Assembly: GCA_948329525.1 (NCBI GenBank)
Contig: CAOJBM010000013.1
Coordinates: forward strand, 1-32,407
Direction of reading: 5' to 3'
DNA: 32,407 nt
Origin: an uncultured Mycoplasmatota bacterium
Lineage (GTDB): Bacteria > Bacillota_I > Bacilli_A > RF39 > UBA660
Below are positions 4,995 through 7,113 of this stretch, piece after piece. The number at the start of each line of letters is the position of its first letter. Positions within the stretch are counted from its first letter, which is position 1. The translations under genes and the position numbers were made by a program. The notes beneath the pieces are model-generated. The model did no database searches, was not told the DNA's origin, and saw only the letters and a list, made by a program, of their open reading frames with translations.

Positions 4995-5255
4995 ATGAAA
5001 AGATTAAAAAAATTTAGAACATTAGAAAACAAAATAAATATAAGTGCAAAAATATTTTGTGGCTTATTAATCATAGGAATAGTATTAGTAGGAAAGACTT
5101 ATGCAGAGTATAAAGAAGAAACAGAAGTAACTTTTATTAATGTTAAAGTAAGATGGCCAAGAGCAGCTGAAATAAGTTATGTAACAACACATAACGAAAA
5201 TGTGACAACGGTTGAACAAGCTTTAACTGATTTATATGAAAGGCTTGGTAGTTAA
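4995..5255 (+). CDS. Small membrane-anchored/secreted protein, unknown function
   Basis: An 86-aa protein with a basic N-terminus, one hydrophobic segment (about 18-36, ending in an A-E-Y region that could be a signal-peptidase site) and a short extracytoplasmic part. It finishes with VEQALTDLYERLGS. The following gene has the same plan: a hydrophobic start and then a V..SLDELY motif, so the two look like paralogous N-terminal modules, of which this one has no C-terminal domain. The V-x-x-ALxxLY motif is like the NVQxALDELY linkers common in phage-tail and surface proteins of gut Firmicutes. AGGAG precedes the ATG. Function not recognised. Confidence 0.7.
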   Translation: MKRLKKFRTLENKINISAKIFCGLLIIGIVLVGKTYAEYKEETEVTFINVKVRWPRAAEISYVTTHNENVTTVEQALTDLYERLGS

Positions 5256-5256
5256 T

Positions 5257-6150
5257 ATGAAAAAGAGCGCAAAGTCAATAGTGGCTTTATTAATAACCTT
5301 TATAATAGGAATAAGTACAACAGTGGGAGCAGCAACAATTTTTAATAGTAAAGATATAACATATAGTAGTGACAAAACAGAAGTTACAAATGTTAAAGAC
5401 TCATTAGATGAATTATATAATAAATCAGAAAATATTGGGAAGTGTTTAGAAGGAAATTTGTGTCGAGAAGCAGTAATTAAAAATGTTCAATTAGGAGATT
5501 ATATCAGTATGACTCCAACAAGTACAAATTATACAATATCAAAAGATTTAACAGGATATACTACTGATCAAACGATTAATCCAAGTGAATTAAATTTATG
5601 GCGAGTAATAAGTAAAAATTCAGATGGAACAGTAGATGTTGTATCAGAGTATGTATCAAGTAAGAAAGTAAAATTTGATGGAAAAGATGGCTATATGAAA
5701 TTTATTGGAACACTTAACATAGTTGCATCTCAATATACAAATGCAAAATATGTAAGTAGTACAAGATATTTAGGGTATACTGATCAAAAAGAAACTTGTA
5801 CAGGTACATTGTCTACGACTACATGTCCAAGTGATACAGGATATGAAAAAGATGTAGAGTCTATACGAAGAATTTTGGGCTCTCTTGAAAGTAAAACTCC
5901 TAGTGAAACTAAGTCAGGATATTGGATAGCATCTCGTCTAGTATTTGCTAAATTGTATTATGTTAGGGGTGTTGGAGGGGCTACCAATATGAGTTATGAT
6001 GTTTGTTCCCAGTGGTTATATGGATCTGGGGCCATTTATAATATGGGAGTTCCTGATGAAAACATTCGTCCTGTTTTAACTTTAAAAGCTGATATTTCTA
6101 TAGTATCTGGTGATGGAAAATCAGCAAAAACTGCCTATCAGTTGGGATAA
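5257..6150 (+). CDS. Secreted surface protein with C-terminal C-type-lectin/DUF6273-like domain
   Basis: A 297-aa exported protein. Residues 1-26 form a signal peptide or N-terminal anchor, followed by a VKDSLDELY linker (about 47-54), a Cys pair (C63, C69), a domain with LWRVISKNSDGTVDVVSEY (about 114-132), another Cys pair (C181, C190) and a C-terminal block opening with GYWIASR and closing with IRPVLTLK. A W-R at the front and a terminal RPVL strand are the framework of DUF6273/FGE-type C-type-lectin folds. The ATG lies one base after the upstream stop, so translation is coupled; the in-frame upstream ATG at 5236 lies inside the previous gene and is less likely. Residues about 228-268 differ sharply in base composition from the rest. 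Probable surface or adhesion role (inference). Confidence 0.75.
   Translation: MKKSAKSIVALLITFIIGISTTVGAATIFNSKDITYSSDKTEVTNVKDSLDELYNKSENIGKCLEGNLCREAVIKNVQLGDYISMTPTSTNYTISKDLTGYTTDQTINPSELNLWRVISKNSDGTVDVVSEYVSSKKVKFDGKDGYMKFIGTLNIVASQYTNAKYVSSTRYLGYTDQKETCTGTLSTTTCPSDTGYEKDVESIRRILGSLESKTPSETKSGYWIASRLVFAKLYYVRGVGGATNMSYDVCSQWLYGSGAIYNMGVPDENIRPVLTLKADISIVSGDGKSAKTAYQLG
5938..6060 (+). other. Candidate variable region of the C-type-lectin-like domain
   Basis: By hand count, 5941-6060 is about 23% A and 39% G+C, against about 45% A and 27% G+C for 5521-5640 of the same gene. About 25 of its 40 codons end in C or T. It is bounded by conserved-looking YWIASR and IRPVL segments. This is the position and composition expected of a variable region made from A-rich AAY template codons, but no template repeat or reverse transcriptase is in the window. 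Confidence 0.4.
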
Positions 6151-6215: not shown

Positions 6216-6677
6216 ATGTCAAAACAGATAGTGTATCATGGAAGTTATTTAAAAGTTATCAAACCCAAAATAATAGAAGGAAAATATTTTAAAGATTTTG
6301 GAACTGGATTTTATTGTACAATACTTGATGAACAAGCAATAAAATGGGCTAAAAAATATGAAACACCAATATTAAATATATATGAATATAATGAAAATTC
6401 TAAATTAAGGATTAAAGAATTTAGTGTGATGAGTGAAGAATGGCTAGATTTTATTATAAATTGTCGCAATGGAAAAAAACATAACTATGATATCGTAATA
6501 GGAGCAATGGCTGATGACCAAGTTTATAATTATATTTCCGATTTGATAGAAGGAAATATAACAAGAGAAGCTTTTTGGGAACTTGCTAAATTTAAACATC
6601 CAACTCATCAAATTGCTTTCTGTACACAAGATGCACTAGAAACTTTAACTTTTATTGAAGAAAAGGAGCTAGATTGA
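6216..6677 (+). CDS. DUF3990 family protein (ADP-ribosyltransferase-like, putative toxin)
   Basis: The 153-aa protein opens with IVYHGSYLKV..P and continues with GKYFKDFGTGFYCTILDEQAIKWA, the pattern of DUF3990 (PF13151), a family placed in the ADP-ribosyltransferase superfamily. YHGS would supply the NAD-binding His of an H-type ART, and the FGTGFYCT block is the conserved following strand. The C-terminal half contains DIVIGAMADDQVYNYI and a HQIAFCTQDALETL ending typical of the family. The ATG at 6216 is 7 bases after GGAGG and is preferred over ATG 6210. It is followed one base later by a small partner gene. I infer a toxin-antitoxin or signalling pair; the target is unknown. Confidence 0.8.
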   Translation: MSKQIVYHGSYLKVIKPKIIEGKYFKDFGTGFYCTILDEQAIKWAKKYETPILNIYEYNENSKLRIKEFSVMSEEWLDFIINCRNGKKHNYDIVIGAMADDQVYNYISDLIEGNITREAFWELAKFKHPTHQIAFCTQDALETLTFIEEKELD

Positions 6678-6678
6678 G

Positions 6679-7113
6679 ATGTCACAATCTAAAAATGATT
6701 TGTTCTATTTGTGCAGTTTAATAGAATATATTTCACGAATCACAAAAAATACTAAAAAAGATATTGTTATAGCAATTGGGAAAGAAAACTTAACAAAAAT
6801 TTATTCTTTAGCTAGTGTTTTACATACAGAACCAATAGAAAAAATAAGTGATGAAATAATAGATAAATATCATATTTCTATAGGAAATTATTCAAATGAT
6901 TATTATCAACATAAAATACCTACTTTTTGGGACATGGGAAAAATATATCAAAGACTTATTGTTATGAATAGTAAAGATGAAGATTACATAACTTCTTTAG
7001 TAGAGGTTTTAACTTCTTTTATTATCTTAAAATTAGATAATTATGATAGTAGTCTTTATTATGAGAATCCCTCATATCTTTATGAATGTTATAAAGAAGG
7101 AAAAATATTGTAA
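6679..7113 (+). CDS. Partner of the DUF3990 protein (DUF3791-like N-terminus, putative antitoxin)
   Basis: A 144-aa soluble protein. The N-terminal half (LIEYISRITKNTKKDIV through EKISDEIIDKYHI, about 14-67) is helical and looks like small DUF3791-type proteins regularly found beside DUF3990 genes. The second half (about 78-144) has a DMGKIYQRLI segment and a C-terminal YYENPSYLYECYKEGKIL. The ATG follows the DUF3990 stop by one base and AGGAG lies 11 bases upstream, so the pair is one operon. An antidote role is inference from gene order; no DNA-binding motif is evident. Confidence 0.65.
   Translation: MSQSKNDLFYLCSLIEYISRITKNTKKDIVIAIGKENLTKIYSLASVLHTEPIEKISDEIIDKYHISIGNYSNDYYQHKIPTFWDMGKIYQRLIVMNSKDEDYITSLVEVLTSFIILKLDNYDSSLYYENPSYLYECYKEGKIL

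What the first reader, a model, noticed from the sequence alone, without database searches (positions are those of the whole stretch)
5938..6060. Composition-shifted C-type-lectin segment resembling a diversity-generating variable region
Within one gene, A content falls from about 45% (5521-5640) to about 23% (5941-6060) and G+C rises from about 27% to about 39% (hand counts). The stretch lies at the C-terminus between YWIASR and IRPVL, the framework positions of C-type-lectin variable domains, and most codons end in C/T as expected from AAY template codons after adenine mutagenesis. A diversified or cassette-exchanged surface-binding domain is a reasonable inference. The exported architecture and dedicated repressor add weight.
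Basis: partly seen in the sequence, partly recalled or inferred. Interest (0 to 1): 0.6.

Follow-up and report, generated by a model that had tools for sequence, protein, structure and literature searches.

The report
Untemplated relative of hypermutated surface proteins
The flagged stretch is the variable slot of one member of a large family of exported bacterial proteins; in the same genome other members have this very slot rewritten by an error-prone reverse-transcriptase system, but this copy has no template and looks like an ordinary diverged relative.

Summary
The composition shift is real (A 45% to 23%, G+C 27% to 39%), but a shift that size occurs inside about a fifth of genes here. 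The gene (5257-6150, 297 aa) is one of about 26 paralogous places in a 1.79 Mb Bacilli MAG. The MAG carries three diversity-generating retroelements (DGRs). One, on contig C54, has an Avd-like gene, two template repeats and an RT. Its templates match variable regions in three proteins of the window gene's family, and those regions occupy exactly the flagged slot, between YWLASR and AVRPIVTLK. Against the best template, mismatches fall on template adenines in 22 of 22 cases (C54) and 18 of 18 (C17).

This copy fails the test. It has no template in the assembly, matches the four known templates no better than shuffled sequence, and lacks the AAY-derived codon signature (62% C/T-ending codons against 82%). 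The same-genus MAG has about 20 homologs, equally variable in this slot, with only a retron-like RT. Best reading: a non-templated relative of DGR targets, diversified by duplication, N-terminal homogenisation and ordinary divergence. A C-type-lectin fold could not be confirmed.

The parts
5257..6150 (+). gene of the exported family protein, 297 aa
   Evidence: ORF; about 26 paralogous places in the same genome; 21 strong matches in the same-genus genome
5485..6147 (+). conserved domain shared by the whole family (QLGDYISMTP ... to the end)
   Evidence: alignments A1-A3; search with this part
5920..5937 (+). YWIASR, 5' framework of the slot (YWLASR in DGR targets)
5938..6063 (+). hypervariable slot, 42 codons; same position as the DGR-A variable regions, but without a template
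6064..6078 (+). IRPVL, 3' framework of the slot (VRPIV in DGR targets)
4995..5255 (+). small one-TM protein gene, 86 aa, paired with the family gene
   Evidence: related small gene directly upstream of the family gene also on C49, C15, C10 and C6
4459..4887 (-). divergent XRE-type regulator with two HTH domains; link to the family gene not shown
   Evidence: Pfam HTH_3 and HTH_19; relatives not consistently beside paralogs

Best explanation
The segment is the hypervariable, probably ligand-contacting slot at the C-terminus of one member of a multigene family of exported proteins. In this genome a DGR (Avd-like gene, two template repeats and RT on contig C54) rewrites this same slot in at least three other members by adenine-directed mutagenic retrohoming. 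The window gene is a non-templated relative (a 'VP homolog'). Its slot differs from the others through gene duplication, homogenisation of the shared N-terminal part and ordinary or recombinational divergence of the C-terminal part; there is no sign that it is a current DGR target. SHOWN: family membership, slot homology, template-derived variable regions in relatives, absence of a template for this copy in the assembly, slot divergence to near-chance level while N-termini stay similar. INFERRED: export and surface display, ligand binding, C-type-lectin-like fold, gene conversion as the cause of N-terminal uniformity.
For: Three DGR-type RTs with Avd proteins for two of them. TR-A1 vs C54 variable region 22/22 and TR-A2 vs C17 18/18 mismatches at template A. 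These regions sit between LASR and VRP in C-terminal fragments sharing the window protein's framework. Window slot: no DNA match in own genome beyond chance; best non-A mismatch fraction 0.57-0.64 on all four templates, within the range of shuffles, positive control 0.0; C/T-ending codons 62% vs 82%. Paralogs in the same genus keep near-identical first 40 codons while the slot falls to 40-45% nt identity, in a genome whose only detected RT is retron-like.
Against: The MAG is about 90% complete, and C45/C58/C81 look diversified in this slot without an assembled template, so at least one template may be missing. The slot's low A and raised G+C lie in the direction of the true variable regions. 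The other genome is 89% complete, so its lack of a DGR is not certain.
Confidence: 0.8

Rival explanations
1. The window gene is a current DGR target whose template lies in the unassembled part of the genome.
For: Correct slot, family and genome; A 0.25 and G+C 0.39 in the slot; the MAG is about 90% complete and the C45/C58/C81 set also lacks an assembled template.
Against: All three RTs found already have their own templates, none related to this slot. The codon signature is absent (62% vs 74-82% C/T-ending). The shared GC-rich 3' end TGCGGTGCGTCC of the templated copies is missing.
Confidence: 0.08
2. A former DGR target: the slot was once written from a template that has since been lost and has drifted.
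For: Same slot as the present DGR targets; intermediate composition.
Against: No residual similarity to any template beyond shuffled sequence. The same slot variability is seen in a genus-mate with no detected DGR.
Confidence: 0.09
3. The C-terminal part was swapped in as a cassette from another gene by recombination.
For: Nt identity and four-fold-site identity fall steeply along the gene between paralogs.
Against: No donor segment found in own genome, in 290 other family genomes or in the viral collection. The decline is graded rather than at a sharp boundary, and the framework on both sides of the slot is conserved.
Confidence: 0.03

Closest known systems
Paralogs of DGR variable proteins ('VP homologs') in cyanobacteria (PMC7517822)
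   Same: A set of paralogs in one genome in which some are DGR targets, some remote targets and some only homologous, with the variable part near the 3' end of the gene.
   Different: Different lineage and domain; here no kinase or caspase-like partner domain and no library match for the variable domain. That paper's 50% identity rule was not applied in the same way; here template fit was compared with shuffled sequence.
Multi-target DGR of Treponema denticola, TvpA (PMC4891356)
   Same: One DGR feeding several distant, exported targets, with mismatches at template adenines; the paper also notes additional 'suspicious' target genes.
   Different: TvpA targets are FGE-sulfatase-like; DGR-A targets here have no library match. 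DGR-A carries two templates.
DGR targets of the global metagenome survey (PMC8144416)
   Same: The authors report annotated variable regions as systematically C-Lec, with at least 75% of mismatches facing template adenines in nearly all DGRs; DGR-A and DGR-B fit that bias.
   Different: The window copy has no template, and its fold could not be assigned here.

Membership tests
DGR target (variable protein) | DGR-type reverse transcriptase in the same genome | tested here: met
   Three RTs with (I/L)GxxxSQ motifs; Avd beside two of them; C54 RT closest in the PDB to 8ub7, named only 'Reverse transcriptase' there
DGR target (variable protein) | Template repeat matching this gene's segment except at template adenines | tested here: not met
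   No match in own genome nor in 290 other family genomes; no better than shuffles on TR-A1, TR-A2, TR-B and TR-C
DGR target (variable protein) | AAY-derived codons in the variable region | tested here: not met
   62% C/T-ending codons vs 82% in DGR-A variable regions; 17% of ordinary 42-codon windows reach 62%
DGR target (variable protein) | Variable segment at the same position as in proven targets of the family | tested here: met
   Slot between YWIASR and IRPVL aligns with the DGR-A regions between YWLASR and VRPIV
DGR target (variable protein) | Variation among strains or reads confined to the segment | not testable with these tools
   One genome per species is held and no metagenome scan was allowed
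C-type-lectin fold protein | Detectable C-type-lectin fold or profile | tested here: inconclusive
   No match in Pfam, NCBIfam, PHROGs or PDB sequences; models of pLDDT 43 and 65, the latter of a same-genus homolog, with no Foldseek match at E <= 0.001

The most novel reading that the evidence does not exclude
The whole family, window copy included, is one diversified repertoire: a few members hypermutated by DGRs from templates partly missing from the assembly, and other members acting as frozen variants, with recombination moving slots between them.
Probability: 0.07. Interest if true: 0.65.

Novelty: new member of a known kind. Interest (0 to 1): 0.4.

Why it matters
It shows a DGR embedded in a much larger, unannotated family of exported proteins in a little-studied Bacilli lineage. 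Templated and untemplated copies of the same slot sit in one genome, so the effect of DGR mutagenesis can be compared with ordinary paralog divergence. It is also a caution: composition and framework motifs alone cannot tell a DGR variable region from a non-templated relative.

Tried and rejected
DNA search for a template in own genome and in 291 family genomes: apart from the window itself only 25-nt coincidences in BspA-like repeat proteins of G102 and G114. Viral contigs: no relatives; the alignment query was too divergent to use. DGR-C (C97) was first thought to have lost its template off the contig end; homology to G010:C114 located it downstream of the RT, FGE-like and unrelated to the window. 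Pfam DUF5027 (E 0.048, 13.8 bits against a cut-off of 25) rejected as sub-threshold. Structure models too weak for a fold assignment. Gapped identity of the window slot to DGR variable regions (0.51-0.64) lies mostly within codon-shuffled values; C54, C67 and C81 (shuffle fractions 0.035, 0.05, 0.015) are weak and not corrected for eight comparisons.

Full report
OBSERVATION. The composition shift is as described: A 0.450 to 0.233, G+C 0.267 to 0.392. An A content that low is found in 0.7% of 120-nt windows of sampled CDSs, but an internal A range as large as this gene's is found in 22% of genes. C/T-ending codons make up 62% of the slot; 17% of 42-codon windows reach that. The shift is real but not diagnostic.

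FAMILY. The 297-aa protein has about 26 paralogous places in its own 1.79 Mb, 121-contig MAG and 21 strong matches in the only same-genus genome held (G001). A search of another collection found relatives in the MAG CAOJRP01, titled uncultured Erysipelotrichaceae; contig numbers and positions agree with G001. Only 5 of 145 family genomes, these two included, have matches at E <= 1e-25. No Pfam, NCBIfam or PHROGs family covers the domain. Five copies, the window's included, are preceded by a related small one-TM gene.

DGRs IN THE SAME GENOME. RVT_1 finds three RTs, all with (I/L)GxxxSQ motifs, which I know as typical of DGR RTs. DGR-A (C54): Avd-like gene, template repeats TR-A1 (1173-1330) and TR-A2 (1565-1722), RT; variable regions at C54:39-196, C67:9762-9919 and C17:27737-27894. 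Mismatches at template A: C54 vs TR-A1 22 of 22, C17 vs TR-A2 18 of 18, C67 vs TR-A1 20 of 26. DGR-B (C1): 10 of 10. DGR-C (C97): Avd (PF22296) and RT, with an FGE-like template downstream of the RT, found by homology to G010:C114. A search with that template found no other copy in the genome.

SAME SLOT. The DGR-A variable regions lie between LASR and AVRP in C-terminal fragments that share the window protein's framework. This corresponds exactly to 5938-6063 in the window.

THIS COPY IS NOT TEMPLATED. A BLAST search with 5905-6085 finds nothing beyond chance in the genome, although the same method finds DGR-A variable regions at 80-86% identity with a TR-A query. Best ungapped placement on each template gives non-A mismatch fractions of 0.57-0.64, within shuffled values; the positive control gives 0.0. 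True variable regions show 82% C/T-ending codons, the window 62%. The window also lacks the GC-rich 3' end TGCGGTGCGTCC shared by the templated copies.

LIMIT OF THE NEGATIVE. The MAG is about 90% complete, and contigs C54, C67 and C17 end at or just upstream of their variable regions. C45, C58 and C81 look diversified (C45 vs C81 97.9% identical upstream, 72% in the slot) but have no assembled template. At least one template may therefore be missing, so absence for the window is strong but not final evidence.

HOW THE SLOT DIVERGES WITHOUT A TEMPLATE. In G001, four copies lie close together and share 96-99% nt identity over the first 40 codons, falling to about 40-50% around the slot; identity at four-fold sites tends to fall as well, on small counts. 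The only RT detected in G001 is retron-like. Slot variability in this family therefore does not require a currently detectable DGR. Duplication, N-terminal homogenisation and divergence or recombination of the C-terminal part explain it (inference).

FOLD AND FUNCTION. There is no PDB sequence match. The model of the window protein is poor (pLDDT 43); a model of a same-genus homolog's domain reaches 65 but gives no structural neighbour at E <= 0.001. A C-type-lectin-like fold is plausible because annotated DGR variable regions are systematically C-Lec (PMC8144416), but it is not shown. Export is inferred from the N-terminal hydrophobic segment; binding is inferred from the DGR link.

KNOWN PARALLELS. 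Paralogs with and without template similarity beside DGR targets are described in cyanobacteria (PMC7517822), and multi-target DGRs in T. denticola (PMC4891356). This is a new member of that known kind.

Noticed in passing
L026 (C54): variable region 39-196, Avd-like about 789-1142, TR 1173-1330 and 1565-1722, RT about 1893-2858: A DGR with two related template repeats; different distant variable regions fit different templates (C54 fits TR-A1, C17 fits TR-A2).
   Followed up: yes
L042 10321-11943, L041 9128-10759, L067 5529-6176 (contigs C45, C58, C81): Three family members nearly identical upstream but 65-72% identical in the slot, with DGR-like codon use and no template in the assembly: probably targets of a missing template.
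   Followed up: partly
L024 11444-11543 and 13078-13177 (C1, minus strand): A second DGR with template and variable region (10 of 10 mismatches at template A); its target is an unrelated protein of at least 400 aa without a Pfam match.
   Followed up: partly
L025 (C97) about 2085-2205 minus, with RT and Avd: A third DGR whose template encodes an FGE-like segment (LRGGSFNNS...GFRPAL); its target is cut off at the contig end.
   Followed up: partly
L095 256-4906 (G001 contig 3): Four family genes close together with near-identical N-termini and strongly different C-terminal parts.
   Followed up: partly
L031 4947-5657 (C12): An open frame whose first part resembles the protein downstream of the C54 RT and whose second part is a family fragment: probably a chimeric remnant.
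   Followed up: no
window 6216-7113: A DUF3990 protein gene (E 2e-49) followed directly by a gene of 144 aa without Pfam match; possibly a toxin-antitoxin-like pair.
   Followed up: no
G069:C1 (15 places, e.g. 74826-75608): Fifteen RT matches with the same score and identity in one Bacilli genome, probably a mobile group II intron.
   Followed up: no
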